A stretch of 64,000 bases of DNA from a virus: positions 51,880 through 115,879 of IMG/VR virus record IMGVR_UViG_3300002138_000190; one strand, given 5' to 3'. Below are positions 38,754 to 64,000 of the stretch, piece by piece. How positions within the stretch are numbered: the first letter of the stretch is position 1; each line of letters begins with the position of its first letter. The notes beneath the pieces were generated by a model. That model was given only the letters and a program-made list of their open reading frames with translations. It was not told where the DNA came from and did not search any database. The translations under genes were made by a program, and so were the position numbers.

Positions 38754-38785
38754 ATAAAATATTTTTTGTAATTTTTGGTTGTATT

Positions 38786-38793
38786 AATAAATA
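38786..38793 (+). promoter_or_regulatory. AATAAATA element 4 nt before ATG
   Basis: AATAAATA followed by AATT and the ATG at 38798, with no Shine-Dalgarno. It has the same spacing as the elements at 8866, 10930 and 32770. Confidence 0.5.
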
Positions 38794-38797
38794 AATT

Positions 38798-38989
38798 ATG
38801 CCTTTTCATAGTAAAGTACAATCTGATAAATGTTATGCCACAGGTGGGTTTAATGGTGCTGTTGACTGTGATGAATGGGCAGCAGAAACTGATTATAAGA
38901 CATTGCCACATAGGTTACATCCTTCAAAGGTAAAAAAAGGCAAGAGAAAATCTTTTAAAGAATGGCTTGATCAAAGAGAAAGTATTTAA
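38798..38989 (+). CDS. Small unknown protein
   Basis: 63 residues (MPFHSKVQSDKCYATGGFNGAVDCDEWAAE...). It contains two Cys and a His/Lys-rich C-terminal part ending KSFKEWLDQRESI, which resembles the short F-x-x-[WF]-L helix at the N-termini of several other proteins here. Translation probably starts without a Shine-Dalgarno. The RmlD-like gene follows after 2 nt. Function unknown. Confidence 0.5.
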   Translation: MPFHSKVQSDKCYATGGFNGAVDCDEWAAETDYKTLPHRLHPSKVKKGKRKSFKEWLDQRESI

Positions 38990-38991
38990 CT

Positions 38992-41988: not shown

Positions 41989-41989
41989 T

Positions 41990-42844: not shown

Positions 42845-43610
42845 TAAAAAATGTATCATGAATTATTTTCTCATCAGGAAAATTAGGGAACAGTATTTTA
42901 TCTATTCTTTTCTCAATTCTTGTTTTGGGAAATCTTCTATTTATAAATGTTTTTTCTGTGCAATCATCAAATCTAAAATGACTAGTAAGTCTTATTTTAT
43001 TAGATTTATTTTCTCCAGATCTGTGAATAAGAAAGTTTGAAAAAAACAAAACATCTCCTAGATTCATTTTTATTTTTTCAAATTCAAAATTTAATTTTTT
43101 TGGCAATAATGGTATTCCACTATCATTCTCATGTTTTAAATATCCTAATAGATGTGACTTAGGAACAACTTCTAAATATCCCATATTGGCTTGCATTTTA
43201 GTTAATGGAAACCAACATGTTATTCCCTTTAGACTTCCTTGTGTACTTGGCCAGTCTTGGTGGGCATTAACTTTCCAATAGTTTTTACTCTTAGCAGTAT
43301 CTTTGCTACTAAATGAAATTAAAGGTCTAGTATTAACACTTGATTTTTCAATCCCTATTTCAGCGAGTGTTTTTTCAATTTTACAAGAAGTAAGTAATTT
43401 ATAAACACTTGTTAAATTTTGGCATAAATTAGCACAACCTAAAAAAGCATCAAAATCATTTTTGAAAACATATTTTATTATTTCATCTTCTTTTAATTTT
43501 TTACTGCAAAAATTTTTAAATAAAGATATTATTTCTTTTCTTACAATTAATAATTCTTCTTCTGAAAATAGTTTTCTTTTTAAGTAAAAGCCTTTTTTTA
43601 AATATTGCAT
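42831..43610 (-). CDS. Phytanoyl-CoA dioxygenase family (Fe(II)/2-oxoglutarate oxygenase)
   Basis: 259 residues. NAHQDWPSTQGS near residue 114 gives the H-x-D iron ligands. FLIHRSGENKSNKIRLTSHFRF near residue 195 gives the distal His and the Arg that binds 2-oxoglutarate. TCWFPLTKMQANMGYLEVVPKSH is the typical jellyroll strand of PhyH proteins. It would hydroxylate a small molecule; in this island a sugar, amino-sugar acyl group or lipid is likely. The end overlaps the neighbouring glycosyltransferase, showing one operon. Confidence 0.82.
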   Translation of the reverse strand: MQYLKKGFYLKRKLFSEEELLIVRKEIISLFKNFCSKKLKEDEIIKYVFKNDFDAFLGCANLCQNLTSVYKLLTSCKIEKTLAEIGIEKSSVNTRPLISFSSKDTAKSKNYWKVNAHQDWPSTQGSLKGITCWFPLTKMQANMGYLEVVPKSHLLGYLKHENDSGIPLLPKKLNFEFEKIKMNLGDVLFFSNFLIHRSGENKSNKIRLTSHFRFDDCTEKTFINRRFPKTRIEKRIDKILFPNFPDEKIIHDTFFNDNI

Positions 43611-44380
43611 TTAGCTATTCCTATTCCTGTTTCCCCATAATTATTTCCATTATAAAACATTAAATTATTAATAATCCAAGGATAACATACCATTTCACAA
43701 TCCCAACCAGATTTTGATTTAGATAATATCTTAGTGGTAATTTTGGTTAATATGTCATAATTATATATTTCATAGTTTTTATTAATTGTTTTTTTTGAAA
43801 AATATAGTTTATTGTTGTACAAGAAAGGTCTTGAACAAGCTTCTTTTTCTCCACCTGTTAATTTTTTTTTAGCTATCCATCTTTTTTTATATTCTGCTAC
43901 CCAAATAGAATAAAAAGGCATGTTTTTTTCCCATCCTGAGCCATTACAAAAATACATTTTATTTTTAATCACAAAAGGAGAATTTGCTAAAAAAGGAACA
44001 TTTTCACTTCTGTCTAAAACAGGCCAATTTGATAATCTTTCAAATAAATTTTTTTCATGATTGAATTTTGCAATGCCTATGCCATGCCCATAAGGAACTG
44101 TACCTTTTTGAATATTCCATCCTGTGTAATAAAGCAAATCTGATATTATGCAAGATGGCATTACTCCACTATCATCAAAACATCCTTTATCTCCAACATT
44201 AAATACTGGCTTTTTATTTCTATAAGTAATTTTTAAATTTTCTGGATCTATTTCAAAATAATTAATAACACTTTTGTTGTTTATTCTGTAAGAATAAAAT
44301 ATTCTTAAATAGCCTAAATATTCAATTACAGTAGGTAGTTGAGCATATCCATCATAAATTATTTTTACTTTTTGCCACAT
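43598..44380 (-). CDS. Beta-propeller glycosidase-like protein (GH43/GH130 type)
   Basis: 260 residues. Repeated blades are visible: FDDSGVMPSCIISD, YGHGIGIAKFNHEKNLFERLSNWPVL, NSPFVIKNKMYFCNGSG, EKEACSRPFLYNNKLYFSKK, and GWDCEMVCYPWIINNLMFYNGNNYGETGIGIA. This pattern is frequent in five-bladed glycosidase-like proteins found inside O-antigen clusters, which act on or recognise sugars. Acidic residues suitable for catalysis are present (DDSG, CEM), but the reaction is not clear. It overlaps the PhyH gene by 13 nt. Confidence 0.6.
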   Translation of the reverse strand: MWQKVKIIYDGYAQLPTVIEYLGYLRIFYSYRINNKSVINYFEIDPENLKITYRNKKPVFNVGDKGCFDDSGVMPSCIISDLLYYTGWNIQKGTVPYGHGIGIAKFNHEKNLFERLSNWPVLDRSENVPFLANSPFVIKNKMYFCNGSGWEKNMPFYSIWVAEYKKRWIAKKKLTGGEKEACSRPFLYNNKLYFSKKTINKNYEIYNYDILTKITTKILSKSKSGWDCEMVCYPWIINNLMFYNGNNYGETGIGIAKCNI

Positions 44381-44381
44381 T

Positions 44382-44975
44382 TTAATAATTTTTTGAATTA
44401 GGTTTTGTATTTTTAGTAATTTTAGCCCCCATACATATAAAAGAATTTTCAGCTATTGTTATATTATCTCTTATTGTTGAATTAACACCAAACCAAGAAT
44501 ATTTCTTTACTTTGCATTTTCCTGACAACACAACATGCGATGAAAAAAATACATTGCTTTCAATGATGCTGTGGTGACCTATGTGGTTTCCACTCCACAT
44601 AATGACATTATTTCCTATTTTAACATAAGGCTGGATCACATTGTTTTCAAATATAAAACAATTTTCTCCAATTTTTTCAGTATAAACTGTTGCTTTATCT
44701 GAAATAAAAGAAATTAATTTGTACCCTTTATCCTTTATCTCTTTGCTTTTTAATTCTCTAAGTTTGTTGTTATAAAGGGGTGCAAAAAAAACATAATCTT
44801 TAGGAGAAAAATATTTATTTATTTTCTCAAAAGGTACAATTGGTGTTCTTTCTTTTGATTTGTTTTTTATAAATTTTTCATTTTCGCAAAAAGCTACAAT
44901 TGTATTGCCTTGCATTTTTAAATAAAATTTAGCAAGTAGAGAACATTCATTTGACCCGAAAATAATTACTTTCAT
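44382..44975 (-). CDS. PglD-like sugar acyltransferase (left-handed beta-helix)
   Basis: 197 residues. The N-terminal Rossmann-like part (1-90: KVIIFGSNECSLLAKFYLKMQG, PIVPFEKINKYF) binds the UDP-sugar in PglD/NeuD enzymes. From about residue 95 hexapeptide repeats form the acyl-CoA-binding beta-helix (VIQPYVKIGNNVIMWSGNHIGHHSIIESNVFFSSHVVLSG, then WFGVNSTIRDNITIAENSFI). The His in HIGHH matches the catalytic His region. It probably acylates an amino sugar made by the DegT proteins in this island. Confidence 0.85.
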   Translation of the reverse strand: MKVIIFGSNECSLLAKFYLKMQGNTIVAFCENEKFIKNKSKERTPIVPFEKINKYFSPKDYVFFAPLYNNKLRELKSKEIKDKGYKLISFISDKATVYTEKIGENCFIFENNVIQPYVKIGNNVIMWSGNHIGHHSIIESNVFFSSHVVLSGKCKVKKYSWFGVNSTIRDNITIAENSFICMGAKITKNTKPNSKNY

Positions 44976-44994
44976 ACTAATTTATAATAATAAT

Positions 44995-46455
44995 ATGTTA
45001 CACTTAAATAAAGAAAATTACGATAATAAATTTTGTTTAGACACTTATGTCATAAGAGATAAAAATTGCATAGGTTATTGTTGTTCTAGCCCAGAAAAAT
45101 TAGAAGAAAAACTAAAAATTGCAGCATTTAGTAATTTTAAATATGTAGAATTATGGCACAAAGATGTTTTTAATTATATTAATAAATATGGTTGTGATAG
45201 TTTACTTAATTTATTAAATAAATTCAATTTAAAAGTTTCATCTTACAAAGTTTTAGAAAATTGGTTTGAAGGAAATTCTTCTTTAGAAGTTATAGAATAC
45301 GCAGCTAAAATAAAATCAAATAATTTAGTAGTTAAACTACTAAGTGATGCAAATGAAAACCCTATTGCTGAAATTGATTGGTATGTTGAAAGATATTTAG
45401 AATTAATTAAAATATGTGAAAAATACAAATTGTATCCTTGTTTAGAATTCATGTGTTTAGCTAAAACTATGAATAATATAGATTTTGTTTATGAAATACT
45501 TAAAAGAACAAATCATCCATATTGCTCATTAGTTTTAGATACTTGGCACTTATGGAGAAATGACAATGAAAATTTTGATAAATTTGAAAAAACATTATTT
45601 AATTTAAATAAAACATGGGTCAAAATTATACATTTTACAGATGCAAGAAAAGATATACCTAGAGAAATACAAAAAGATGGCGATAGAAAAATGCCTAATG
45701 AAGGCCTATTAAATTTAACAAAGTTTTGCAATTTGTTAAAATCAAAAGACATTAAAACAACTTATTCTTTAAATGTTTATGACCAAAATTTATGGAATCA
45801 AAACTTATATGAAGTTGCAAAAAAATCATTTGAATGTTTTGGTAAATATTTTGACATTAATGCTAAAAGTTTAGCTGATTCTAAATCTTGGGAAAATAAA
45901 CAAGATGAAAGATGTAATGGGTTATGGGAAAATAGTTACAAAACACATTTAGATCCTAGATTTTCTAATAGTGATAGAGATATACAACTAGAAAATATAT
46001 TAAAAGACTATTTGCAGGATAAAAAAGTTTTAGATTTCAAATGTGGATTCTCACCTTTGGCAAAATATGTAACATATGGTTTTGATGCTTATAAAAAATG
46101 CATAGATTATTTAAAAATTAATTTTAAAAATTCTTTTTGGTGGTGCATGTCCGATAATCAATTTGGTAATTTTTTCAACGAAAAAATAGATGTTTTGCTG
46201 CATATTGGATTAGGTGATTCTAATACTGAATTAGTAAATCATTTGAAAATTAGAAATAACTGCAAACCTTCAGTTGTAATAATTGAATGTGCTGCAAATG
46301 AAGACAAAACTGTAAATGAATCAAAAGAAGGAAATACAAGAAATTGGGAAGTTTTAATTAAAGATTTAGTTGAAAGAAAAGAATTTTTCATAAAAACAAA
46401 TATGAATGATAGAAGTTACAGACTATTAGTAATAGGCAAGTGCAATAATGCTTAA
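44995..46455 (+). CDS. Fusion: xylose-isomerase-like TIM barrel plus methyltransferase-like domain
   Basis: 486 residues. The first 290 form an AP-endonuclease-2/xylose-isomerase-like barrel: FKYVELWHKDVF, PCLEFMC (metal-binding Glu), SLVLDTWHLWR (Asp, His), and VKIIHFTDARKDIPREIQ (His, Asp). From about 300 a different domain starts: SKSWENKQDERCNGLWENSYKTHLDPR, DKKVLDFKCGFSPLAKYVTYGFDAYKKC (degenerate SAM-motif I region) and PSVVIIECAANED. This looks like a class I methyltransferase fold with a weakened glycine motif. It is divergent from the PglD-like gene. Confidence 0.62.
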   Translation: MLHLNKENYDNKFCLDTYVIRDKNCIGYCCSSPEKLEEKLKIAAFSNFKYVELWHKDVFNYINKYGCDSLLNLLNKFNLKVSSYKVLENWFEGNSSLEVIEYAAKIKSNNLVVKLLSDANENPIAEIDWYVERYLELIKICEKYKLYPCLEFMCLAKTMNNIDFVYEILKRTNHPYCSLVLDTWHLWRNDNENFDKFEKTLFNLNKTWVKIIHFTDARKDIPREIQKDGDRKMPNEGLLNLTKFCNLLKSKDIKTTYSLNVYDQNLWNQNLYEVAKKSFECFGKYFDINAKSLADSKSWENKQDERCNGLWENSYKTHLDPRFSNSDRDIQLENILKDYLQDKKVLDFKCGFSPLAKYVTYGFDAYKKCIDYLKINFKNSFWWCMSDNQFGNFFNEKIDVLLHIGLGDSNTELVNHLKIRNNCKPSVVIIECAANEDKTVNESKEGNTRNWEVLIKDLVERKEFFIKTNMNDRSYRLLVIGKCNNA

Positions 46456-46747
46456 GGAAAATTTTTTTACATATCATGAAAAAAACCATGTAGAAATTAC
46501 CGCAATCGAAGATTGTACAGTTTACATAGGAACTCCACCTACTAAAATAAAAGAAAACAATAATGGGTTCAATCACAATGATTTAGCAAAAGGTTCTTTA
46601 CTGAATTTTTTTTCTTTCCCAAAACAAAAACAAATATTTTTAAAAAGTAAAGAATCTATAAAAATAGATTCTTTTGTTGCTTATAGGATTTATGGAAATT
46701 GTTTGAGAAAGTTTGACAATGATGAAATTATATTTTTTATGTCATGA
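46448..46747 (+). CDS. Small unknown protein
   Basis: 99 residues, starting within the stop region of the fusion gene (8-nt overlap). It is beta-rich (NHVEITAIEDCTVYIGTPPTK, KQIFLKSKESIKIDSFVAYRIYG) and has no membrane helix. A cupin-like or accessory barrel is conceivable but not supported by metal ligands. It overlaps the next gene by about 29 nt, so the three plus-strand genes are one unit. Confidence 0.5.
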   Translation: MLKENFFTYHEKNHVEITAIEDCTVYIGTPPTKIKENNNGFNHNDLAKGSLLNFFSFPKQKQIFLKSKESIKIDSFVAYRIYGNCLRKFDNDEIIFFMS

Positions 46748-47777
46748 AAGATGGAAAGATAATCATGCTGAACCATTATTGAGAAGCGTAAATTTTTTGT
46801 CTAATTTTGATATAAATTTAATACCAGTATTTTGTCCATCTAACAAAGGAACTCCTGAATTATTATGGCCTGATTGTGATGATACAGAAAGAAGAAGCGA
46901 AATAGATGAACTGTTTGATTCTTTGATCTTTCCCGATGCAGTTATAGTTCACCATCGTTGTCTTTCACCTAAAATGTTAAGATCTAAAATACCTTTAATA
47001 ATTTTAGAACATACAGATGGAACTTCTTTAGAAATATCAAGAAATTTCATAAATTTAGATAATGTAATTGGTGTAATCAAAGGTAGTGTTTTTACAAACT
47101 ATGATTTTTATAATGCAAGTTTAACTGAAGGTATGTATCATTCAAATTACATGAATTTAATTGGTTTGCCAAAATCAAAAGTAAAACAAATAAGTTCTAT
47201 TTTTTTAAGTAAAATAGAACTTGGTTATTCTTTTGGATGTTTCCCATCTAATAAAAGATTTTTAAATTATCAGTTAGATAAGTCAAAAGATATATTGGTA
47301 TCTTTTATTGGAAATATAAATTACCATAGGAGTAAACTTGTTACTGCACATAGAAATTTAGCTTTTAATAAAATAAAAAATTTAAATGGTAGTTATTATT
47401 CATTAGGTGGAATGCATCAAAATGAATATGATGATATATTATTAAGAAGTAAATTTTGTTTATCTCCATATGGGTATGGTGTTTGCTATAGAAGTTTTGA
47501 ATCGATATACACAGAATGTATTACTATTCAGCCAGACTCAAATTTTTTAAAAACATGGCCCAATATATTTGTCGAAAATATTGGTTATTTGAAATGTAAA
47601 TCTGATTTTTCAGATTTAGATGAATTGTGTAATATTTCAAATACTAAATATGAGGAACTATTGATTGAAACAAAAAATTTAAAGCAAGAATTAATAAACA
47701 GTTATTGGAAAGAAGAAATTATTGGAAATCATTTGAAAAATATAATTGTAAATTGTATTTCTAGAATAAAGAATTAA
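46719..47777 (+). CDS. Exostosin-like glycosyltransferase (GT47 type)
   Basis: 352 residues from ATG 46719 (a neighbouring ATG at 46722 and TTG at 46713 are alternatives). KDILVSFIGNINYHRSKLVTAHRNL near residue 195 and LGGMHQNEYDDILLRSKFCLSPYGYGVCYRSFESIYTECITIQPD near 230-275 match exostosin/GT47 proteins: the [FL]-x-L-x-P-x-G-x-x-x-x-[SR]-x-R-x-x-E/D core. The N-terminal half is the acceptor Rossmann domain. Its TAA shares two bases with the convergent gene's TAA. Confidence 0.78.
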   Translation: MMKLYFLCHERWKDNHAEPLLRSVNFLSNFDINLIPVFCPSNKGTPELLWPDCDDTERRSEIDELFDSLIFPDAVIVHHRCLSPKMLRSKIPLIILEHTDGTSLEISRNFINLDNVIGVIKGSVFTNYDFYNASLTEGMYHSNYMNLIGLPKSKVKQISSIFLSKIELGYSFGCFPSNKRFLNYQLDKSKDILVSFIGNINYHRSKLVTAHRNLAFNKIKNLNGSYYSLGGMHQNEYDDILLRSKFCLSPYGYGVCYRSFESIYTECITIQPDSNFLKTWPNIFVENIGYLKCKSDFSDLDELCNISNTKYEELLIETKNLKQELINSYWKEEIIGNHLKNIIVNCISRIKN

Positions 47778-48430
47778 TTTTTAACAATTGCAACTATCTT
47801 GCCTGATTGATACTTCTTGTTTGCAATATTAATAATTTCATTTGCTATTTCAATTACAGAAGTTTGTCCTTTTTCTTCGCCTATGCCACCAAAACTAATA
47901 ACATTGGCAAATATTAAAAGATTTTTTAATTCATTTGCCAAATGAAATGCATATTCATTTAACCCTGCTTTTGCGGATGCATAAACACCTACTTGTCCTA
48001 AATCTCTAGTATTTGATATTACAGAACTACTAGTGAAAATTATATTACTGTTTTTATTCATTAGTGGTATTACATGTTTCATCAATAAGACATTTATTAA
48101 AAAGTTAGTTTCTACAATCCATTTTACATCTTCATGTTTCATTTTAAAACAGCTATCAAGTTGTAAAGGAAGACTGTCAAATCCTTTGTTGCCACCTATA
48201 CAAGAAACAAATAAATCAATTTTTTTATTTTTAAAAAAATCATTTTTGAAAAAATTTTCAATGTTTTCTTTTTTAGAAAAATCACAACACTCGAAATCAT
48301 TATTGTTTTTCTTTCTTTTAAATGTATGTTTTAAAATATTGAAATTATTATTTTTTAGTTTTTCACATATTGCTGTTCCAACAAATGAACTTGCTCCAAC
48401 AACTAAAGCATTATTTTTAGTTTGAATCAT
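47774..48430 (-). CDS. Short-chain dehydrogenase/reductase
   Basis: 218 residues. VVGASSFVGTAIC at about 10-22 is the NAD(P) site (in place of TGxxxGIG). DLFVSCIGGN matches the NNAG position. NIIFTSSSVIS carries the catalytic Ser, and VGVYASAKAGLNEYAFHLANEL the Tyr-x-x-x-Lys. It has all catalytic residues but a shortened C-terminus. It likely reduces or epimerises a keto-sugar or acyl intermediate. The N-terminus overlaps the radical SAM stop. Confidence 0.78.
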   Translation of the reverse strand: MIQTKNNALVVGASSFVGTAICEKLKNNNFNILKHTFKRKKNNNDFECCDFSKKENIENFFKNDFFKNKKIDLFVSCIGGNKGFDSLPLQLDSCFKMKHEDVKWIVETNFLINVLLMKHVIPLMNKNSNIIFTSSSVISNTRDLGQVGVYASAKAGLNEYAFHLANELKNLLIFANVISFGGIGEEKGQTSVIEIANEIINIANKKYQSGKIVAIVKN

Positions 48431-49286
48431 ATTCTTGTATGTTTTTCTTTTTTCTTATAATTTTTAAATTTTCAACGGAAACAAATGATTTATCAGATAT
48501 TTTTTGATCTTTAATTATATGTGGATCATTTGAAAAACCAGCAGCACACCTGTAACAAAAATTCTCTGCTTGTTTAGCTATCTCTTCATTTGTTTTATCA
48601 AATGGATTTTTGCCATCTTCAATTTTCCAACCATTATCTTCTCCTGATATTTGATCAAAAGCAGGAGCAACTTCACAAATATAAGCTTTGTCATTGTAAA
48701 TAGTGACTCCACATTTATTCCAACAAACACAATGTTTTTTAGCTTGATTCCAATAATATTTTTTATTTTTTATTTTTAACACATCAATAGGGGCTACTAA
48801 TGTTGGATTAAACATTTTCATTGGAATATCATCTTTTCCATAATGTTCTTTGAAATCAATTAAGAATGTAACATTGTTTTTATCAGGAATCCAAGCACCA
48901 ACTCTATTTTCTTTTCTTTCAACTTCACATTTGGAAATGTCATGTAGTCTTCCATTAGAAAAAATAATAAAATTGTAATCTTCATATGAGTAAAGTATTT
49001 CTTTTATTTCATTAAATTTTGGATGTAATGTTGGTTCCCCTCCAAATATCCAAATTTTCTTGCTAATATATTTACCCATTGTTTCAATGTTTGTTTTTAA
49101 TTGGTCTAAATCAATAAACCAAAGTTGTTCTTTTTCAAAGTGACCACAAAGTTGGCTGCATCCACCACAATGCAAATTACAAACATTTGTTATGGTAATG
49201 TATGGAGGTCTTTTTTTAAACATTAAATTATCAGGGCCATCTATTTGTTCGTAAGTAATATTTCTTTTTATGATATGGTTAAGCAT
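48417..49286 (-). CDS. Radical SAM enzyme with SPASM/twitch-like C-terminal Cys
   Basis: 289 residues. NVCNLHCGGCSQLC near residue 35 contains the canonical CxxxCxxC cluster. KKIWIFGGEPTLHPKF follows (SAM-binding GGEP). HCVCWNKCGVTIYNDKAYICEVAP at about 190 and NFCYRCAAGF near 245 add further Cys that could bind an auxiliary FeS cluster. It likely performs radical chemistry on a sugar or nucleotide-sugar, or another small substrate. It is next to the MOSC gene (8-nt overlap) and a DegT 3-dehydratase-like gene, which suggests a shared pathway. Confidence 0.82.
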   Translation of the reverse strand: MLNHIIKRNITYEQIDGPDNLMFKKRPPYITITNVCNLHCGGCSQLCGHFEKEQLWFIDLDQLKTNIETMGKYISKKIWIFGGEPTLHPKFNEIKEILYSYEDYNFIIFSNGRLHDISKCEVERKENRVGAWIPDKNNVTFLIDFKEHYGKDDIPMKMFNPTLVAPIDVLKIKNKKYYWNQAKKHCVCWNKCGVTIYNDKAYICEVAPAFDQISGEDNGWKIEDGKNPFDKTNEEIAKQAENFCYRCAAGFSNDPHIIKDQKISDKSFVSVENLKIIRKKKNIQEYDSN

Positions 49287-49815
49287 TTAATACCTTTTTT
49301 ATTGTGTCGTTTATTTTTACAAATCCGCTTTCGATAACTTCTGCTCTAATCCCGCCATTTAATAATAAAACATCTATTAAACCTTTGCATTTTGTATATT
49401 CTTCTATATGTTTGCATCCTTTGCAAAATTCAACTCCTTTAAGTAAAACATCATTTATCTTGAAATATCTATTCATCAGAGAATTTAAGTTTAAATTTTC
49501 GGTTAAAATATTTCTCCTTAAATCTATTGGTTCAAGATTAGGGAATTTTTTTTTAATTTCTTTAATGTTTTGAGCATCTATCAAAGAAATGTTTCTTGGG
49601 TTTTTAAATTTAACTAAGTTATTATCTTGTAATTTAAAATGAGAAACATCATACCACCTATCTCCAACAATTCCTTTGTTCTTATGTATTTCAACTGAAT
49701 TCATGGCAATCATTGGATTGGCATAGTTATAGCCACCAGCTGGTGGTGTGTTTGTATCTTCAATAGGCTTAGATATGAAAATACTTAGCACTTTTATTTT
49801 TTGTATTAACAACAT
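49279..49815 (-). CDS. MOSC domain protein
   Basis: 178 residues. EIHKNKGIVGDRWYDVSHFKL near residue 45 and NPRNISLIDAQNIKEI, LRRNILTENLNLNSLM, then LLKGVEFCKGCKHIEEY with the Cys, and GGIRAEVIESGFVKINDTI at the end are the MOSC family core. MOSC proteins carry sulfur or molybdenum-cofactor chemistry; the Cys in VEFCKGC is the likely carrier. Phage MOSC genes are rare. It is tightly coupled with the radical SAM gene and the DegT gene, so it may deliver sulfur or a cofactor to one of them. That is inference. Confidence 0.8.
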   Translation of the reverse strand: MLLIQKIKVLSIFISKPIEDTNTPPAGGYNYANPMIAMNSVEIHKNKGIVGDRWYDVSHFKLQDNNLVKFKNPRNISLIDAQNIKEIKKKFPNLEPIDLRRNILTENLNLNSLMNRYFKINDVLLKGVEFCKGCKHIEEYTKCKGLIDVLLLNGGIRAEVIESGFVKINDTIKKVLNA

Positions 49816-50990
49816 TAATTTATATCTATGTAATTTTTAATTTTACTTGAAACATACTCCATATCTTTCAAGTTTAATCCATGCCAACATCCAACAAATA
49901 AACTATTCTTCATAAGAAAATCAGCTATTGGTAAATTTTGATACAAGTGTTTAAATGGTTTGTGTCTGGTAATATTACCAGCAAAAAAAGGTCTGCTTTT
50001 GATATTGTTTTTCAACAAGTACAAAGCTAAATCATTACGATTTCCATCTTGCAAAGTTACTACATACCCATAATAGGCAGGATTAGAATCATCAAGAACT
50101 TTCATTTTTGTTGTTGGATAATTACTCAATGAATTTTGAAGATAATTAAAATTTTCAATTCTTTTTTTTGTAAATCCTTTTAATCTATTCATTTGAACAC
50201 ATGCATAAGCTGCTGCTGTGTCTGGCATAAGCATATTCCATCCACAAGTTTCATATGTAAATTGTTCGTCATAAGCTATATTATCAATAAAACAAGAATA
50301 ATTTGTAATTTTTTCAATGTTTTTTTCTGTTTCTAAAGTAGATATTTTCCCCCATGTTTTCATTGATCTTATTTTGTAAATTAATTCTTCATCATCTGTA
50401 ATAACAGCACCCCCCATGCCCATTCCATTAATTTGATGAGAAGGATAAAAAGAAAATGTGCCTAATTTTCCATAAGTTCCAACATGTTTTTTTTTGTAAA
50501 ATGATCCTAAAGACTCACAGCAATCTTCAATTATATGAATGTTATATTTATCACAAATTTCTTTTATCGGAATAATATCAACAGGATTGCCTAAAGTATG
50601 TGCGAAAATTATAGCTTTTACATTATCTTTTTCTTTTTTAACAGCATCAATTACTTGATTTATATCAATGTTGTAAGATGGTAACTCATAATCTACTAAA
50701 ACAGGTTGTAATCCTAAATGTAAAATTGGATTTAGAGTAGCTGGAAAACCACATCCAGAAGTAATAACTTTAGAATTTTTCGGTAAATTCAAACTAGCTA
50801 AAGCTAATAAATTTGCTGACGAACCTGAATTAACACAAGTACAAAATTTAGAACCTGTAAAATCACAAATTAATCTTTCTAATTTCTTGTTTTCTTTTCC
50901 TGATGTGTGCCACTTACTGATTAAAACTTTAATAACAGCTAAATATTCTTGAATTCCATGTTTTATTCCACCAAAAGATATAGGTTTCAT
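49815..50990 (-). CDS. DegT-family sugar 3-dehydratase-like enzyme (His in place of PLP Lys)
   Basis: 391 residues. DegT/DnrJ/EryC1 layout: VNSGSSANLLALASLNLP near residue 52, CGFPATLNPILHLGLQPVLVD near 80, ANI-type FAHTLGNPVD and IIEDCCESLG near 140. The PLP-site segment reads GTFSFYPSHQINGMGMGG. In aminotransferases this has Lys (for example S-F-x-x-x-K); here a His takes that place. A His there is known from E1 (RfbH, CDP-4-keto-6-deoxyglucose 3-dehydrase) and ColD, which use PMP for 3-deoxygenation. So a 3-dehydratase role is likely. The ATG overlaps the upstream stop. Confidence 0.8.
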   Translation of the reverse strand: MKPISFGGIKHGIQEYLAVIKVLISKWHTSGKENKKLERLICDFTGSKFCTCVNSGSSANLLALASLNLPKNSKVITSGCGFPATLNPILHLGLQPVLVDYELPSYNIDINQVIDAVKKEKDNVKAIIFAHTLGNPVDIIPIKEICDKYNIHIIEDCCESLGSFYKKKHVGTYGKLGTFSFYPSHQINGMGMGGAVITDDEELIYKIRSMKTWGKISTLETEKNIEKITNYSCFIDNIAYDEQFTYETCGWNMLMPDTAAAYACVQMNRLKGFTKKRIENFNYLQNSLSNYPTTKMKVLDDSNPAYYGYVVTLQDGNRNDLALYLLKNNIKSRPFFAGNITRHKPFKHLYQNLPIADFLMKNSLFVGCWHGLNLKDMEYVSSKIKNYIDIN

Positions 50991-51808
50991 AATTTCTTTC
51001 TTTGATTGTAATAGTGTTCTCTAATTTCTTTTTCACTTACATAAGGCACATTCTTAATAGAATGATGAATTAGAAATTTTTCATCAATTAATCTTGGGTC
51101 TAATGGTTTTTTTCTGCCATGATGAGATGAATATAACGGTGGAACCAAATTATCAGGATACTCACCCCAATAAAAATTTTCAAAACCCATAAGTTTAACA
51201 CAATTAGTTAAAAAAGATTCTGATGGGAATGGATAGTTTTCATGCTTTGTATCTAACAAGCCATTTTCAAAAGCTTTATCAATAAAACTTCTACTTTGGA
51301 AATTAACTGCATAAAATATTTGTCTTTCTGGAAAAACAAAATCATTTATATTTGGAAAATATGGATTGAAGTGGTTCTTTATTTTTTCTATCATCCAGTC
51401 TTTAGAATAAATTGCATCATCTTTGCTTCCTATGCAACCTATGTTTTTGTTGTGAGTGAAAATATTTAAAGCCCATACATCTAATCCTTTTCCGTTAATT
51501 GGCAATGCATCATCATCAATAACCATCACCATTTTAAAATTATATTTTTTATTTAAAGCATAAGTAATTCCATCATTTACTTTTTGACTTATATTTCTAT
51601 TTTCTTTTTTCAAAATTGCTTTAGTGTGTACTATTTCAACATTTTGAATGTTTAAATTTTTTATTTTTTTACTATCATCTACAACAATCATTTTTACTTT
51701 AGATTTGCAACTCCAAAAAATTGCATCAATTTGATCCAATACAATGTCTTCGCCTCTATGTGTAGGCATTATAACCAATGTGTCAAATTCACTAATTTGC
51801 TTGAGCAT
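50987..51808 (-). CDS. Glycosyltransferase family 2-like
   Basis: 273 residues. FDTLVIMPTHRGEDIVLDQIDAIF opens the GT-A fold, and FKMVMVIDDDALPINGKGLDVWALNIF near residue 92 provides the metal-binding DDD. SKVKMIVVDDSKKI is the second strand. The C-terminal half has PPLYSSHHGRKKP and HHSIKNVPYVSEKE. It is coupled to the DegT-like gene. The donor and acceptor are unknown. Confidence 0.68.
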   Translation of the reverse strand: MLKQISEFDTLVIMPTHRGEDIVLDQIDAIFWSCKSKVKMIVVDDSKKIKNLNIQNVEIVHTKAILKKENRNISQKVNDGITYALNKKYNFKMVMVIDDDALPINGKGLDVWALNIFTHNKNIGCIGSKDDAIYSKDWMIEKIKNHFNPYFPNINDFVFPERQIFYAVNFQSRSFIDKAFENGLLDTKHENYPFPSESFLTNCVKLMGFENFYWGEYPDNLVPPLYSSHHGRKKPLDPRLIDEKFLIHHSIKNVPYVSEKEIREHYYNQRKKL

Positions 51809-51863
51809 TTTATGTTGTTATTTAGTGTAATTTATTTGTAAATTTTTAAAATTAAAAACTAAT

Positions 51864-52748
51864 TTAATTTTTCCATAAGTCACTTAAAAGCCATTTTGAA
51901 TTAATTTTTTGTTTATCTATTTCTAATGGATTGAATGCTATATTAAGCTTTTCAAATTGTAATTCATAAAAAGATTTTGGAAGAGTAGTTAAAAGGTTTT
52001 TGTACAAAGTTAATTCTTTTAATTTTTTCAAGTTGCCAAAATTTTCTGGTAACTTCTTTAGTTTGTTTTTGTGAATTCTCAAACCTTCTAAATTTTGCAA
52101 ATTACAAAAACTATCAGGTAAATTTTCTATTTTATTTGCTACTAAAGAAAGCCATTTTAATTTTTTTAAATTTTCTATTTCTTCAGATATCATTGTGATG
52201 CCAGATAATCCCCAAGAAAAAAATTCTAAATTTTTAAGCTTATAGATAAAATTTGGAATTTTTCTTATTTTATTCAAATAAAGATTTAAAAATTCTAAGT
52301 TGCTTAAAACAGATATACTGTCTATATTTTTTAATTCATTTTTGTGAAGTTTCAAGGTTTTTAATTTTAGTAAATTACAGATTGAATCAGGTAATTCTTT
52401 TAAATCATTAACTCCAAGGTTTAAAAATTCTAAGTTTAAATTAAGTACTGTTTCAGGTATTTTTTTTAAATAATTAGATCCTAAATCTAAATGTTTTAAA
52501 TTTTTTAAATTTAAATTATGCAAGTCACAAATTCTATTTTTTCTTAAATTCAATATTTCTAAATTTTCTAAATTTGAAATATTTTTAATTATTTTATTTT
52601 TTTCACTAGGAATTAAATTTCTTATTGTTCCATGAAAAATAAATTCTTTATTTGTAAAATCAATTTTAATGCATTTATCTTCGTGGAATTCATAGTTGAA
52701 AAAAGGTGTTATTTTTTTTATATTTGCAATAACATCATGATCTTTCAT
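51864..52748 (-). CDS. Leucine-rich repeat protein
   Basis: 294 residues with nine or so LRR units of 21-24 residues from about residue 55 to 270 (for example LEILNLRKNRICDL, LKHLDLGSNYLKKIPE, LKTLKLHKNELKNI, LEGLRIHKNKLKKLPE). The pattern LxxLxLxxNxLxxLP is that of typical bacterial LRR proteins. It has no signal peptide or membrane helix and begins with a short cap (1-45) that includes NYEFHEDKCIKIDF. LRR proteins bind proteins. In a phage a role in blocking or recruiting host factors, or in binding an enzyme of this island, is possible. Its ATG overlaps the TauD-like gene end by 14 nt. Confidence 0.88.
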   Translation of the reverse strand: MKDHDVIANIKKITPFFNYEFHEDKCIKIDFTNKEFIFHGTIRNLIPSEKNKIIKNISNLENLEILNLRKNRICDLHNLNLKNLKHLDLGSNYLKKIPETVLNLNLEFLNLGVNDLKELPDSICNLLKLKTLKLHKNELKNIDSISVLSNLEFLNLYLNKIRKIPNFIYKLKNLEFFSWGLSGITMISEEIENLKKLKWLSLVANKIENLPDSFCNLQNLEGLRIHKNKLKKLPENFGNLKKLKELTLYKNLLTTLPKSFYELQFEKLNIAFNPLEIDKQKINSKWLLSDLWKN

Positions 52749-53457
52749 GTATTCCCCCTTTTATCAACCATCTTTCTCCAATAAAGGAATTTCTTCCATG
52801 TAGAACTTTATTGTCTTTGAAAAAAAGTGCATCCCCATTGTTAAGTATAACTGAATCCACTAATCCTGAAGCAATAATTTTTTCTTCTAAAAAATTATGA
52901 AATTCATTAGTTGTTTTATTTTTTTCACAACGATAATAATTCCAATTTAAAAAATTGTTTTCATCTACAATAAAACTTTTTTTGCAATCACTACCTTTGA
53001 AGAAATTAATAATATTGCTTTTTAAATCTTTTAGTAATTTTTCATCGTAATATTTAAGTACTTCAATTAAAAAATCATTTTCAATAAAAGTAGTGGCCCC
53101 ACCATATTTAGCTTTTTGCGAACAACCAAAAAATGTAATTGTGGGTGCGTTAAATTCATATGAACCATCAGTATGAAGAGGTTGTCTTGTATTGCTGTGG
53201 CTATAACTTGAACTTGTAAAATTTACTGGGTGTTTAATATTTGTGAAAAAATTACCATTTTTATTTCCTGTTTGTAAATCTTCTTCCATTAAGGCCAGAT
53301 CACCAATTTTTTGAGCTAAATTTTCATAGTACTCAAAGTTAATATTGTTTGATTCGTTAACACAATGAATAACTTTGAATTTTTTCAATAACTCAATTAA
53401 TTCTTTGTGAATATCTTTTTTGCCATCAAACACAATCTTCCAAATGTATTTTTTCAT
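52735..53457 (-). CDS. TauD/TfdA-like Fe(II)/2-oxoglutarate dioxygenase
   Basis: 240 residues from ATG 53457 (an earlier in-frame ATG at 53496 lengthens the overlap with the flavodoxin gene). RQPLHTDGSYEFNAPTITFFGCSQKAKYGGATTF near residue 90 carries the H-x-D iron ligands and the GGAT/T motif of the family. The second His is in VLHGRNSFIGERWLIKGGI near the end, with the Arg for 2-oxoglutarate. It is a second oxygenase in the island. It could hydroxylate the same precursor or a modified amino acid. The end overlaps the LRR gene. Confidence 0.82.
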   Translation of the reverse strand: MKKYIWKIVFDGKKDIHKELIELLKKFKVIHCVNESNNINFEYYENLAQKIGDLALMEEDLQTGNKNGNFFTNIKHPVNFTSSSYSHSNTRQPLHTDGSYEFNAPTITFFGCSQKAKYGGATTFIENDFLIEVLKYYDEKLLKDLKSNIINFFKGSDCKKSFIVDENNFLNWNYYRCEKNKTTNEFHNFLEEKIIASGLVDSVILNNGDALFFKDNKVLHGRNSFIGERWLIKGGIHERS

Positions 53458-53839
53458 ATAATTTACTTTTCCATTTTTCAAAACAATTCCAATCAATTTT
53501 TGGTATTGAATCTAATGATAACATGTAATAAAATTCTTCAAAACCTAATTCTTCAAAATATTTTTTCAAAATAATACCAGCACCAAAAGTAAAATCTTCA
53601 TATCCATAATAGTTTCCTAATTCGCAAATTGTAAAATACTTAAGGTTGTTTATTTTAATGTTAAGTAAATAATCTTCCATTTCTAATGGTAATTCTTCAT
53701 CACCATAAGTAGGACATAAAATTATTAAAAGATCACAATCAATAATTGGATTTACTTTTATATTTAATGCGTTTTCAAAATAATTCGCAACTAAAGTTGT
53801 TTTGTTTTTAACTGAGCAATAGATAATTTGAATTTTCAT
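53426..53839 (-). CDS. Flavodoxin-like protein
   Basis: 137 residues. YCSVKNKTTLVANYF at 7-21 is the phosphate-binding loop region. LLIILCPTYGDEELPLEMEDYL follows near residue 37, and FTICELGNYYGYEDFTFGAGIILKKYFEEL near 70 is the typical FMN-binding loop with Gly-Asn-Tyr. The length fits short flavodoxins and NrdI. It could deliver electrons to the radical SAM enzyme. It overlaps the TauD-like gene. Confidence 0.78.
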   Translation of the reverse strand: MKIQIIYCSVKNKTTLVANYFENALNIKVNPIIDCDLLIILCPTYGDEELPLEMEDYLLNIKINNLKYFTICELGNYYGYEDFTFGAGIILKKYFEELGFEEFYYMLSLDSIPKIDWNCFEKWKSKLYEKIHLEDCV

Positions 53840-54444
53840 TTAATTATATTATTCAATATGGAAAATTTTTCACCTTTAAATTCTGGCATAAAATTTAATT
53901 CTATTTTATTATCACTAAATTTATTCTTGCAATATAAATCTGTACCCCCAAATGAATTCAAATAATAAGTTGCATTAAATAATTTACACAATTCTAATAT
54001 TCTATCTTGCCCATGTAAATTAGATGAATAATCACTTGCATAATAAAATTCTTTATTTATTCCTAATGTTTTGCATGTCCAAATTATAGAAGTACATAGC
54101 ATATCAGACAAATTATAATATTTTTTAAAAGATAAATAGAAATCTTTAAATATATTGTTTTTACTTTTACCATAAACATGAAGAAATGTTTTTAAGTGTT
54201 TGTCAACCCATGTATTATCATATATTTCAATTTTATTAATGGTAGTTTCTCTTGGTGCATTTTTAACTGGAACTGTTATAAAAATATTATCTTTTTTATT
54301 TGGGGATGGAATAATATTTCTATTGATCCATCTTCTTTTTACATACTGGACATCGTTAAGAAATATAAATTTGTCTGCTGAAGCGATTAAATCAAAATAA
54401 CCTTGATATGGGAAAAAATAAGGCTGCATTATTGCTATCTTCAT
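53836..54444 (-). CDS. WbqC-like protein
   Basis: 202 residues. MKIAIMQPYFFPYQGYFDLIASADKFIFLNDVQYVKRRWINRN is the family's conserved N-terminus. YLNSFGGTDLY near residue 160 is the conserved C-terminal glycine motif. WbqC proteins occur in O-antigen and capsule clusters next to DegT aminotransferases and were proposed to act on amino-sugar intermediates, but their biochemistry is not settled. Here it overlaps the half-length DegT gene by 4 nt. Confidence 0.88.
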   Translation of the reverse strand: MKIAIMQPYFFPYQGYFDLIASADKFIFLNDVQYVKRRWINRNIIPSPNKKDNIFITVPVKNAPRETTINKIEIYDNTWVDKHLKTFLHVYGKSKNNIFKDFYLSFKKYYNLSDMLCTSIIWTCKTLGINKEFYYASDYSSNLHGQDRILELCKLFNATYYLNSFGGTDLYCKNKFSDNKIELNFMPEFKGEKFSILNNIIK

Positions 54445-55031
54445 TTAAACACCGAAAACTTAGACAAATCAGGATATTTGCCCTTACAAACTTTACCTTC
54501 CCCTAAATGAAGCATAAGATTTAAACCTCTTGCTGCTTGTTCAGGTGTCATATACATGTTCCAACCTAAAATTGTAACATCAGTTTGTTCTGCCAAAGGA
54601 ACATTTATTCTTCCACAATACCTAGCTAGTTTAAACCAATCATTGGCTTTTTCATTGTCAGTTAGTATCATGCCACCTTTCCCAATATTAATTGGTTTGT
54701 TTGCACTAAAAGAAACACAAGTATATGTTTCTCGTTCATACATGTTTCTCTTTAAACAACAAGCACTATCAATAATTGGATAAGGGTCTAATGAATAATT
54801 TTCTGTCCATTCATTATCATTAAATTTTATTTTTCCACCGCTATGAATTACAGCAGAAGGAATTGAAATATAAGTTTTTTTAGGAATAGTTATTTCATTT
54901 ACTTTTAAATATTTGCAACATAGAAAAATAGCGTTAGTGCAGTTGTCAACAGCTATTGCATGTTTTGCACCAGTATAAGATGCAATTTTCTTTTCAAATT
55001 CTTCAACAATTGAATAAGGATTTGGTTCCAT
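54441..55031 (-). CDS. Half-length DegT-family aminotransferase
   Basis: 196 residues, about half a usual DegT (370-400). It keeps the large-domain elements: SIVEEFEKKIASYTGAKHAIAVDNCTNAIFLCC at the start, the cofactor strand PYPIIDSACC, and CVSFSANKPINIGKGGMILTDN with a standard PLP Lys (SANK). It ends soon after MYMTPEQAARGLNLML, so the C-terminal small domain is missing. The stop codon and overlaps with neighbours are clean, so it is not an obvious frameshift. It may be a compact enzyme or a subunit that needs a partner. Confidence 0.78.
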   Translation of the reverse strand: MEPNPYSIVEEFEKKIASYTGAKHAIAVDNCTNAIFLCCKYLKVNEITIPKKTYISIPSAVIHSGGKIKFNDNEWTENYSLDPYPIIDSACCLKRNMYERETYTCVSFSANKPINIGKGGMILTDNEKANDWFKLARYCGRINVPLAEQTDVTILGWNMYMTPEQAARGLNLMLHLGEGKVCKGKYPDLSKFSVFK

Positions 55032-55880
55032 TTAATTACTTCCATTTTTAAAATTCAAATTTTTGACAAACAAATTTATATAATTATCTAAATTAATTCT
55101 CGGCTTCCAATTTAACTTTTCATAAGTTTCTTCCATATTAATATTTGCAACATCAATATCATGTTTTGATTTTGGAAGATAAATAATTCTGTTTGCTTTA
55201 AACAAGCTTGATATTTTTTTTATTGAATACTTTTTGGATTCGCCAAAATTAAAAATTTCAAAATTAAAATCTTTTTTCATTAATTTAAAAATGCCTTCAC
55301 AAACATCATTTATGTGAATGAAATGTTTTTTATTTTTACCATCACCATATATTTCAAATGGTAAATTGTTTTCTTTATTGTTTTCAAAAATTCCAACTAA
55401 GTTAGCAGCATTTCCAGTTTTTTTTTGACCAATCCCATAAATGTTAAATAGTCGTAAAATATTAATTTTAAGTCCATAATATTGATTGTAATAAATACAC
55501 AATTCTTCACCTAAATATTTACTGAATGTGTAAGGGTTTAAAAAATAATTACCATGACATGTATAGGAACTTGCAAAAATAACTTTTGCTTTTTTTTCCA
55601 AAGCATACTCTAAAACATTTTTAGTTCCTTTGATATTTACTTCAAAAGTTTTATCAGTATTACTTAGGCATGTCTTTATCCTTGATATTGCAGCAAAATG
55701 TATGATTGTTTTTGGATTAAGGGTTTCAAGTTTTTTGTTCAATAAAAAATTTTTTGTAATATCATGTTTTATTGTTGAATTTTCCAAGTCTAAATCAACA
55801 AAATTAATTTTTTTTTCTTTTAAAAAATTAATTAAATTTGTTCCAATAAATCCTGAAGAACCAGTTATTAAAATGCACAT
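55032..55880 (-). CDS. NAD-dependent sugar epimerase/dehydratase
   Basis: 282 residues. TGSSGFIGTNLI at 6-17 is the extended-SDR NAD site. VKGT-type NIKGTKNVLEYALEKKAKVIFASS and YTFSKYLGEEL near residue 117 carry the catalytic Tyr-x-x-x-Lys. LRLFNIYGIGQ and GDGKNKKHFIHINDVCEGIFKLM are the substrate-side motifs of GalE/RfbB-like enzymes. It probably changes a nucleotide-sugar at C4 or makes a 4-keto sugar. It overlaps the GT9/methyltransferase gene start by 13 nt. Confidence 0.88.
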   Translation of the reverse strand: MCILITGSSGFIGTNLINFLKEKKINFVDLDLENSTIKHDITKNFLLNKKLETLNPKTIIHFAAISRIKTCLSNTDKTFEVNIKGTKNVLEYALEKKAKVIFASSYTCHGNYFLNPYTFSKYLGEELCIYYNQYYGLKINILRLFNIYGIGQKKTGNAANLVGIFENNKENNLPFEIYGDGKNKKHFIHINDVCEGIFKLMKKDFNFEIFNFGESKKYSIKKISSLFKANRIIYLPKSKHDIDVANINMEETYEKLNWKPRINLDNYINLFVKNLNFKNGSN

Positions 55881-57343
55881 TTATTAATGTTTTGTCCAAA
55901 AGCAAAAATTTTATTTTCTTTTATTTTTTTACAAACAAAAGTTTTTACACCTTGTCTGCCACATTTATTTTCTTGCTCAGAAGTTTCAACAATCTTAAAC
56001 CCATTTTGTTCCATGTACCAATCAAAAGATTCATTTGTCCAATAATAAATATGTTCATTCTTTTTGAAATGTTTACTCAAAGAAAGTCTTATGAAATTAT
56101 CGTAAATTGGAAGAGTTACAATAACAAATTGATTTTTTTTAATTTTGGACAAGAAATAACAAGGATTTACCATGTGCTCCAAAGCATCCCACATAGTAAT
56201 TACATCTATTTTTGAAATATCATCGTAATAAGGATTTAAAAAGTTACCTTTATCTTTAAGCCACTTAATTCCATGTGGATTTATATCAAACCCAAAAATA
56301 TTTTTTTTAACTTTATCAATAAACTCACCAGAGCCAATTCCAATATCTAAAACATTACCATCTTTTGTATATTTTTTTGTTAAGTCACATCTAAATTTAT
56401 TTAATTTTTTTGAAATATTAGTGTTTCTTAAATTTACAAAATTTTGAAAATAATCATGTTCATAAGGTATTAATGTATCTAAGTTAATTTGAAATATAAT
56501 ATCATTGGCAAAAGAATGAGCAAAATCTTGATTGTAAAAAATTGCTGCCTTTGTTCCAATAAAGTTGCAATGTCTATAAGGAATTATTGAATTAACTATA
56601 AAATCAAATTCCTTTTGAGCAGTATAATAATATTTCTTGCTAAACATTAAATGAGGACTTAAAGATTTAATTAATAATTTATCTTGTGGGAATAATTGAC
56701 TAGCTAAAACAGATAAGAAAGAATCAATCCCAATGTAACCATTTGCTTTTTTAATAATTTCAATTGATTCTTCTAATGATGTCTTACTCATTAAATTAAC
56801 AATTCTTGAATTAATGGGTATTACATAATCATCTTCATGTACTCCTAAAACAACAGCATATTGGTCTGTTTGCGATAAGAATAATTCAATGTTTCTCCAC
56901 TCAACATTATCAATATCCTTTCTCCCATTCTTACCTCTGGTTACTGTTGTTGGAGCAATTACAATAAACTTTTCTGGCAATTCTTGTTTGATATCCGTAA
57001 TTTTATTCTTTATGAAACTTGATATTCTAAAAGATGGCAAAGTTTTATTGCCAAACACAGTAAAAATACTATGATCAACAATTTTTTCCCAATTTTTTGG
57101 TTTGGTTGTTAACAAAGCTCCTAAGTGTTCTTTAGTTTCAATATAAGGTACTTTGCTCCAATCATCGTAAATAACTTCTACTTCAATATCTTTCCAATAA
57201 GGTAAAAGGTTAAACAAATAAATTAAATCTTTTTTTCTTGGAGTTGCAAGATAAATCTTCTTAATTTGCTTTAGTTGTTTTTCAGGTATAAAGCTTTCAA
57301 TGGCGATGAAATCACCAATTGCACCAGTAATTAATATTTCCAT
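55868..57343 (-). CDS. Fusion: GT9-like glycosyltransferase plus SAM methyltransferase
   Basis: 491 residues. The first 260 resemble ADP-heptose/GT9 enzymes: ILITGAIGDFIAIESFIP at 3-20, FIVIAPTTVTRGKNGRKD near 126, and NGYIGIDSFLSVLASQLFP near 200. A linker leads to a class I methyltransferase from about 330: NVLDIGIGSGEFIDKV (SAM motif I), FGFDINPHGIKWL, VITMWDALEHMVNPCYFLSKI and FVIVTLPIYDNF. Such bifunctional proteins are unusual in phages. It could glycosylate and methylate the same product. The start codon is a plain ATG at 57343 with no strong ribosome site. Confidence 0.78.
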   Translation of the reverse strand: MEILITGAIGDFIAIESFIPEKQLKQIKKIYLATPRKKDLIYLFNLLPYWKDIEVEVIYDDWSKVPYIETKEHLGALLTTKPKNWEKIVDHSIFTVFGNKTLPSFRISSFIKNKITDIKQELPEKFIVIAPTTVTRGKNGRKDIDNVEWRNIELFLSQTDQYAVVLGVHEDDYVIPINSRIVNLMSKTSLEESIEIIKKANGYIGIDSFLSVLASQLFPQDKLLIKSLSPHLMFSKKYYYTAQKEFDFIVNSIIPYRHCNFIGTKAAIFYNQDFAHSFANDIIFQINLDTLIPYEHDYFQNFVNLRNTNISKKLNKFRCDLTKKYTKDGNVLDIGIGSGEFIDKVKKNIFGFDINPHGIKWLKDKGNFLNPYYDDISKIDVITMWDALEHMVNPCYFLSKIKKNQFVIVTLPIYDNFIRLSLSKHFKKNEHIYYWTNESFDWYMEQNGFKIVETSEQENKCGRQGVKTFVCKKIKENKIFAFGQNINKCAF

Positions 57344-59706: not shown

Positions 59707-59714
59707 ACTTACAA

Positions 59715-62828: not shown

Positions 62829-62837
62829 TGAATCTAT

Positions 62838-63335: not shown

Positions 63336-63392
63336 CTTCATACCTTTTAATATTAAATTATCAATGTAGTATATATATTGTTAAAGGAAAAA

Positions 63393-64000
63393 ATGAATAA
63401 ATTATTAAGTATTGTTTTTTTAACTTTTGTTTCAAATTTTGCTATATCGCAACAACCTAGATACAGATTTATATTACCTCCAACACCTCCACAGCCACCA
63501 GCATTGAACAATACGGTTCAAGCTCAAATATCTAATCAAAACATTAATTTTAATACTGGAAGTAGTAGTGGTTTTGGTGGGGGGTTTGGCGGTGGCGGTT
63601 TCCAACAAAATACAGGTGGCATTCAAGGTACTGCACAATATACACAAAATAATACTCCAGGAATGCAAATCTCTAAACTTTATCAAATTCCACTTTCTAC
63701 AGGTGGTGGATTTAGCCAAGGAGGTGGTCAATTTGGTCAAGGTGGAGGTGGTAATATGGTTGGTGGTCAATTTGGTCAAGGTGGCGGTGGATTTGGCCAA
63801 GGAGGTGGTCAATTTGGTCAAGGTGGCGGTGGATTTGGCCAAGGAGGTGGTCAATTTGGTCAAGGTGGCGGTGGATTTGGCCAAGGAGGTGGTCAATTTG
63901 GTCAAGGTGGCGGTGGATTTGGCCAAGGAGGTGGTCAATTTGGTCAAGGTGGCGGTGGATTTGGCCAAGGAGGTGGTCAATTTGGTCAAGGTGGCGGTGG
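63393..64000 (+). CDS. Secreted glycine-rich repeat protein (3' end outside window)
   Basis: 202 codons are visible, starting at ATG 63393 with an AAAGGA Shine-Dalgarno. The first 18-20 residues (MNKLLSIVFLTFVSNFAIS) form a Sec signal peptide, possibly with cleavage after Ser. A Pro-rich (ILPPTPPQPPAL), Asn/Gln-rich segment follows, then Gly-rich sequence and, from residue 124, perfect 14-residue units GGQFGQGGGGFGQG. The frame is open to the window end. A secreted, repetitive Gly/Gln/Phe protein from a phage is unusual. It may be an extracellular or surface fibre or aggregate. Confidence 0.75.
   Translation, partial: MNKLLSIVFLTFVSNFAISQQPRYRFILPPTPPQPPALNNTVQAQISNQNINFNTGSSSGFGGGFGGGGFQQNTGGIQGTAQYTQNNTPGMQISKLYQIPLSTGGGFSQGGGQFGQGGGGNMVGGQFGQGGGGFGQGGGQFGQGGGGFGQGGGQFGQGGGGFGQGGGQFGQGGGGFGQGGGQFGQGGGGFGQGGGQFGQGGG
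63762..64000 (+). repeat. 42-bp tandem repeats, five full copies and a partial one
   Basis: Units start at 63762, 63804, 63846, 63888 and 63930, with a further 29 nt to the edge. The visible copies are nearly or fully identical and in frame, each encoding 14 residues. High identity suggests recent expansion; read-based assembly of this end could be collapsed or extended. Confidence 0.9.

What the first reader, a model, noticed from the sequence alone, without database searches (positions are those of the whole stretch)
63393..64000. Phage gene for a secreted Gly/Gln/Phe repeat protein
A signal peptide, a Pro-rich segment and perfect 14-residue units GGQFGQGGGGFGQG suggest a protein exported from the infected cell or placed on the surface. 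I know no phage protein with this layout. It may form fibres, condensates or a sticky coat.
Basis: partly seen in the sequence, partly recalled or inferred. Interest (0 to 1): 0.68.

Follow-up and report, generated by a model that had tools for sequence, protein, structure and literature searches.

The report
Phage copies of host coat protein
A very large lake-type phage carries a gene for an exported, glycine-rich repeat protein that closely resembles a protein of one group of planctomycete bacteria, which suggests which bacteria it infects and that it alters their outer surface during infection.

Summary
An ATG start at 63393 leads in one frame through a signal peptide, a Pro-rich segment and five perfect 42-bp repeats, until the virus record itself ends at base 64000 of the window. 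The missing end is a contig end, not biology. Twelve other IMG/VR contigs (nine phage types with the window) carry the gene; the complete copies show the full plan: signal peptide, Pro-rich start, conserved N domain, variable Gly/Phe/Gln repeats, a conserved helix-prone segment, and an NG[GD]NG[LI] end. No C-terminal anchor is visible. The same protein is in all 7 genomes held for one Planctomycetota genus and in none of the 88 other genomes of that family. There it mostly sits at a conserved chromosomal place beside an outer-membrane-protein-like gene and, in three contigs, near a YTV-type cell-wall gene. The window phage is related to a 595-kb huge phage. Selection keeps the protein (dN/dS 0.05-0.25). 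Best reading: a planctomycete envelope protein taken up, probably more than once, by phages and exported during infection to modify the host surface. Family, plan and host link are well supported; direction of transfer is inferred; function is not shown. No library family matches it.

The parts
63370..63377 (+). TATATATA box, 23 nt before the ATG, possible phage promoter element
   Evidence: Found 23-26 nt before this gene in window, L002, L003 and L011; in all 12 of 136 upstream stretches against a shuffle mean of 1.4, maximum 6. The motif is its own reverse complement, so divergent gene pairs count one site twice.
63383..63388 (+). AAAGGA ribosome-binding site
   Evidence: read from the sequence
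63393..64000 (+). gene for the secreted Gly/Gln/Phe repeat protein, cut at its 3' end by the end of the virus record
63393..63449 (+). signal peptide MNKLLSIVFLTFVSNFAIS (cleavage site by inspection)
   Evidence: helix 2-18 in the AlphaFold model of relative L003; signal part varies while the mature YR start is kept
63474..63503 (+). Pro-rich segment LPPTPPQPPA
63504..63701 (+). conserved N domain LNNTVQAQI...QYTQNNTPGMQISKLYQIPLST
   Evidence: alignment of phage and bacterial copies
63705..64000 (+). 42-bp / 14-residue tandem repeat array, five perfect units from 63763
34621..57343 (.). cluster of sugar and surface-glycan genes in the same phage (UDP-galactopyranose mutase, DegT aminotransferases, WbqC, epimerase, sulfotransferase and others); context, not part of the gene
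   Evidence: 8 proteins of this region scanned with Pfam; the others are listed only

Best explanation
The gene is a phage-borne version of a secreted envelope protein of one Planctomycetota genus. Shown: the family, its conserved plan, its residence on the chromosomes of all genomes held for that genus, and purifying selection on the phage copies. Inferred: bacteria-to-phage transfer, probably more than once, so the genus is the likely host. Inferred mechanism: during infection the phage makes the protein, Sec exports it, and the Gly/Phe/Gln region, almost free of charge and predicted disordered, packs with itself and with the host's own copies into a gel-like outer layer. The fixed N domain and the NPFY...MQGI segment would be the docking and assembly parts and the repeats the variable filler. 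The changed layer would hide receptors from competing phages or keep the envelope together during a long infection. Identity and host link: about 0.85. Surface-coat mechanism: about 0.45.
For: Family in 7 of 7 genomes of the genus, 7 of 95 of its family, 1 of 392 of a phylum sample, that one being the reference genome. Bacterial contigs carry chromosomal genes (menaquinone synthesis, ECF sigma, kinase) and the locus is conserved with an OMP-like gene (PF05150) and YTV (PF07639) genes. 12 further virus contigs with the gene. Between distinct phage types the surroundings mostly differ. dN/dS 0.048-0.248 in 12 pairs. L010 carries a signal region 95% identical in DNA to L008 but a mature domain only 77% identical, and it shares residues such as ANSGGIQGT and GSQLSFLYQLP with bacterial copy L024. 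One clade for all phage copies: p-AU 0.050; without L010 0.022. Repeat part has 0-3 charged residues in 87-204. A sugar-gene cluster lies in the same phage.
Against: No experiment and no structure: the model is disordered (mean pLDDT 42). The bacterial function is itself unknown; 'envelope' rests on signal peptide and neighbours. The TATATATA box has the place of a T4 late promoter (recalled), and late expression would fit exclusion of other phages less well. No spacer or other DNA link between phage and genus was found in the 20 kb tested, apart from tRNA-like matches and one 33-base match at E 0.008. The tree does not firmly count the transfers (p-AU 0.050), and its direction is inferred. 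A genus-wide gene could have come from a phage in the genus ancestor.
Confidence: 0.5

Rival explanations
1. Interference: the phage version co-assembles with the host protein and spoils or loosens the host layer, easing lysis or release.
For: Docking parts are conserved while repeat type and number differ from the bacterial copies. A late-type box precedes four phage copies.
Against: Phage copies keep the whole plan and look like working versions, not shortened blockers.
Confidence: 0.15
2. Decoy: the host protein is a phage receptor or covers one, and the secreted phage version soaks up competing phages or their fibres.
For: Export signal and a host surface context; repeat part varies among phages.
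Against: No phage fibre is known to bind this protein; nothing here tests binding.
Confidence: 0.1
3. Release matrix: late-made protein leaves the cell and forms a sticky matrix that holds progeny near new hosts.
For: TATATATA box 23-26 nt before the ATG in four phage types; low-charge Gly/Phe/Gln composition.
Against: Timing is inferred from a motif alone; host copies serve an uninfected cell.
Confidence: 0.12
4. Virion part: the protein is mounted on the particle, as glycine-rich adhesins of T-even phages are (recalled).
For: Neighbouring genes often start with a short MxxFxx[WFY][LIV] motif like head-targeting signals (recalled); 8 of 25 ORFs in L003.
Against: This protein has a signal peptide instead, lies outside the structural module and has chromosomal relatives.
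Confidence: 0.08
5. Passenger: a host gene picked up by chance with no benefit to the phage.
For: Gene sits alone in mostly different surroundings.
Against: Open in every phage copy read, low dN/dS over 12 pairs, kept in nine phage types.
Confidence: 0.05

Closest known systems
Host-derived auxiliary genes (morons) of phages
   Same: Relative on host chromosomes, scattered places in phage genomes, kept by selection.
   Different: Not a metabolic gene; a low-complexity secreted protein with no library family.
Surface proteins of huge phages (Al-Shayeb et al. 2020, PMC7162821; passages read)
   Same: The paper says huge phages encode proteins predicted for membrane or cell surface that may affect infection by other phages; the window phage is related to LR756511.1, 595 kb.
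   Different: Planctomycetes are not named in its main text, and this family was not found in LR756511.1 or any other of the 50,697 phage records.
T-even gp38 adhesins with glycine-rich motifs (recalled)
   Same: Glycine-rich segments between other sequence.
   Different: Those are fibre-tip proteins without an export signal; this one has a signal peptide and bacterial relatives.
Planctomycete YTV cell-wall proteins (PF07639)
   Same: Secreted Planctomycete envelope proteins; a YTV gene lies near the host copy.
   Different: YTV proteins are Cys-rich; this family has no Cys in the copies read and no sequence match.

Membership tests
Host-derived auxiliary gene | relative resident on bacterial chromosomes | tested here: met
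   7 of 7 genus genomes; conserved neighbours in contigs L016, L059, L060, L061
Host-derived auxiliary gene | carried by real phage genomes | tested here: met
   window record has terminase and baseplate genes; for the other 12 contigs it rests on IMG/VR, as terminase and baseplate searches found 0 of 12
Host-derived auxiliary gene | transfer direction bacterium to phage | tested here: inconclusive
   tree and AU test p 0.050 and 0.022; root not inferred
Host-derived auxiliary gene | benefit during infection | not testable with these tools
   only dN/dS as a sign of use
Superinfection-exclusion surface protein | exported to envelope | tested here: inconclusive
   signal peptide by inspection and helix in model; no signal predictor on hand
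Superinfection-exclusion surface protein | blocks adsorption or entry of other phages | not testable with these tools
   needs infection assay
T-even gp38-type adhesin | in tail-fibre module, no signal peptide | tested here: not met
   signal peptide present; gene lies about 29 kb beyond the structural module
Outer-membrane spanin (lipoprotein) | lipobox Cys after signal peptide | tested here: not met
   no Cys in the protein
Known protein family in Pfam, PHROGs or NCBIfam | match over cut-off | tested here: not met
   best is PHROG 23729 at E 0.33

The most novel reading that the evidence does not exclude
Huge phages of planctomycetes build an outer gel or condensate on the infected cell from a disordered FG-rich protein taken from the host: a phage-directed extracellular phase made of a low-complexity protein whose fixed ends dock it into the unusual planctomycete envelope and whose repeats are re-tuned by expansion and contraction.
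Probability: 0.22. Interest if true: 0.78.

Novelty: new variant of a known kind. Interest (0 to 1): 0.55.

Why it matters
It links at least nine phage types, one of them related to a 595-kb huge phage, to one phylum and to a single bacterial genus. It gives a family of secreted low-complexity proteins shared by bacterium and phage, so the role of that protein in the poorly known planctomycete envelope and in infection can be tested. It also shows a difference in repeat number between otherwise near-identical phage contigs.

Tried and rejected
No match of the first 116 residues in 50,697 phage records at E up to 1, nor of window 39001-64000 by megablast. A scan with the C segment gave no virus contig beyond those already known. 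AlphaFold gave disorder, so no fold search was run. The terminase and baseplate proteins of the window were not found in the 12 other virus records; these records may be fragments, and the tool warns that an empty answer shows nothing. A search for other DNA shared by window 44001-64000 and the seven genomes gave this gene, tRNA-like matches and one short weak one. Two proteins of L013 and L008 had no match in the phage records. Rejected: spanin (no Cys), gp38-type adhesin (signal peptide, place), passenger (dN/dS). L015 lacks the C segment and joins the left flank of one host locus to the right flank of another; I take it for a probable misassembly through the repeats and give its C end no weight. 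Papers: passages only of PMC7162821, PMC8567305, PMC9875498, PMC7416419, PMC9723584 and PMC6802176; PMC6461901 gave no hits for the terms asked; other papers as search listings. Paper searches made.

Full report
The observation. The window is the last 64,000 bases of a 115,879-base virus record. From ATG 63393 one open frame runs to the end of the record. It encodes a hydrophobic signal-like start, a Pro-rich stretch, a conserved domain, and repeats GGQFGQGGGGFGQG with five perfect 42-bp units from 63763. The record stops inside the array, so the missing end is an assembly end. Three of the bacterial copies, in G474, G475 and G001:C84, also lie at contig ends.

Relatives in viruses. One scan found 10 contigs, two further scans added L013 and L045; in all 12 contigs beside the window. 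L003-L007 are one population, 99.9-100% identical over 18-20 kb, so there are nine phage types. Every phage copy outside the window is a complete frame. The plan is: signal peptide; YR-x-ILP and Pro-rich start; N domain ending in LYQIPLST or similar; repeats of about 5, 6, 7 or 14 residues; segment like IGMNNPFYQMAMQGIMSGVGGSAFQSGG; end like GGGFNNGGNGL. Within the L003 population two contigs have 11 GGGQF units and three have 12, with no base mismatch elsewhere in the aligned 18-20 kb: repeat number changes fast, or assembly miscounts it.

Relatives in bacteria. A scan of 84,980 species genomes found two Planctomycetota contigs, L015 and L016. Around L016 the family is in 7 of 95 genomes of the taxonomic family, all 7 forming the genus (7 of 7), and in 1 of 392 of the phylum sample, G002 itself. 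Completeness of these assemblies was not given. In six genomes (contigs L015, L016, L059-L062) the copy lies beside a gene whose L015 copy matches PF05150 outer membrane proteins at E 8e-9; in four (L016, L059, L060, L061) two menaquinone-type genes follow (Radical_SAM/CofH_C and VitK2_biosynth in L016); in three a YTV gene comes next (YTV tested by Pfam in L059 and L061, by similarity in L060). G476 has a second copy beside a kinase and an ECF sigma gene, and G001 part of one. The copy of G475 has other neighbours and is cut. YTV proteins have been found in cell-wall preparations of planctomycetes (PMC8567305, passages read).

Phage or host first? Several species share the chromosomal places, whereas the distinct phage types have mostly different surroundings (L008 and L009 share nine ORF matches in 20 kb, L002 and L003 two). 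So bacterium to phage is the simpler direction, but it is inferred. In the tree the phage rows need four changes; holding them as one clade gives p-AU 0.050, without L010 0.022 (L025 left out as a long branch, L045 not yet found then), so more than one transfer is likely, not proven. L010 looks mosaic: its signal region is 95% and 94% identical to L008 and L009, its mature domain 77% and 73%, and 74% to bacterial copy L024.

Selection. In 12 pairs dN/dS was 0.048-0.248; for the window against L003 0.048, L002 0.074, L016 0.102.

The phage. The record holds a T4-type terminase whose best match is LR756511.1, a 595-kb uncultured phage (48.5% identity over 96%). Of the 25 window ORFs between 2.0 and 34.5 kb, 21 match ORFs of LR756511.1 at 552-582 kb in the same order; one more matches out of order (150,000 of its 595,163 bases compared). 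Terminase and the baseplate-region gene at window 11461 are about 23 kb apart in both. So the record is probably a piece of a huge phage. LR756511.1 and two records of 634 and 642 kb also give the best matches of an L003 protein. For the other contigs no hallmark gene was found with the queries used.

Expression. TATATATA occurs 23-26 nt before this gene in four phage types and before other genes: 12 of 136 upstream stretches against a shuffle mean of 1.4 and maximum 6. It is a palindrome, so divergent pairs count twice; about seven separate sites remain. TATAAATA itself, the T4 late box (recalled), is not enriched (3 against 3.2). L008, L009, L010, L013 and L045 lack the box before this gene.

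Physical character. The part after the N domain is 39-69% Gly with 0-3 charged residues in 87-204 (16 of the 17 rows, one being cut before it). AlphaFold of L003 with 11 rows has mean pLDDT 42; only the signal helix and a short helix at 210-219 appear. A gel, fibre or condensate is compatible with this but not shown.

Mechanism. Shown: family, plan, bacterial residence, selection. Inferred: Sec export, surface place, assembly with host copies, change of the surface in infection. The same phage has a cluster of sugar genes, in line with surface change. Al-Shayeb et al. (PMC7162821, passages) suggested that surface proteins of huge phages may affect infection by other phages; planctomycetes are not mentioned in the main text, and they predict Bacteroidetes as hosts for the five genomes over 634 kb. 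Phages predicted for Planctomycetes are mentioned for Lac Pavin (PMC9875498, passage) and for freshwater metagenomes (PMC6802176, passage).

Verdict. Not an artefact, and not a classic phage protein: a host-type envelope protein in planctomycete-linked phages, a new family within the known kind of host-derived phage genes.

Noticed in passing
window 2017-34484: Structural module collinear with the 595-kb huge phage LR756511.1: 21 of 25 ORFs match in order.
   Followed up: yes
window 34621-57343: About 23 kb of sugar and surface-glycan genes: UDP-galactopyranose mutase, DegT aminotransferases, WbqC, epimerase, sulfotransferase.
   Followed up: partly
window 60137-63341 and L002, L003, L009, L011, L013: Many proteins near the gene start with MxxFxx[WFY][LIV]: 8 of 25 ORFs in L003 and 5 of 16 in L002, against 4 of 136 and 3 of 98 internal Met; 3 of 65 in the window, 0 of 21 in the two bacterial contigs. 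It resembles the head-targeting start of T4 internal proteins (recalled); some may be packaged proteins.
   Followed up: partly
window 61995-63393, L003 10001, L002 5187, L011 9989: TATATATA box before genes, a possible phage promoter type.
   Followed up: partly
L015 4896-5504: Probable chimeric assembly: left flank of one host locus joined to right flank of the second through the repeat gene.
   Followed up: partly
window 3901-4641: ORF with 33-, 30- and 36-bp tandem repeats (GPKDGAGPK type); no counterpart in the LR756511.1 pieces compared.
   Followed up: no
L008 14748-19949: Two neighbouring large ORFs with the same start MNFNFQEWLLILEELKPKALAFKILGNTVD, apparent tandem duplication.
   Followed up: no
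window 57412-58296: Three tRNA genes (Thr, Met, Asn); the Met tRNA region matches sites in all seven genomes of the genus.
   Followed up: no
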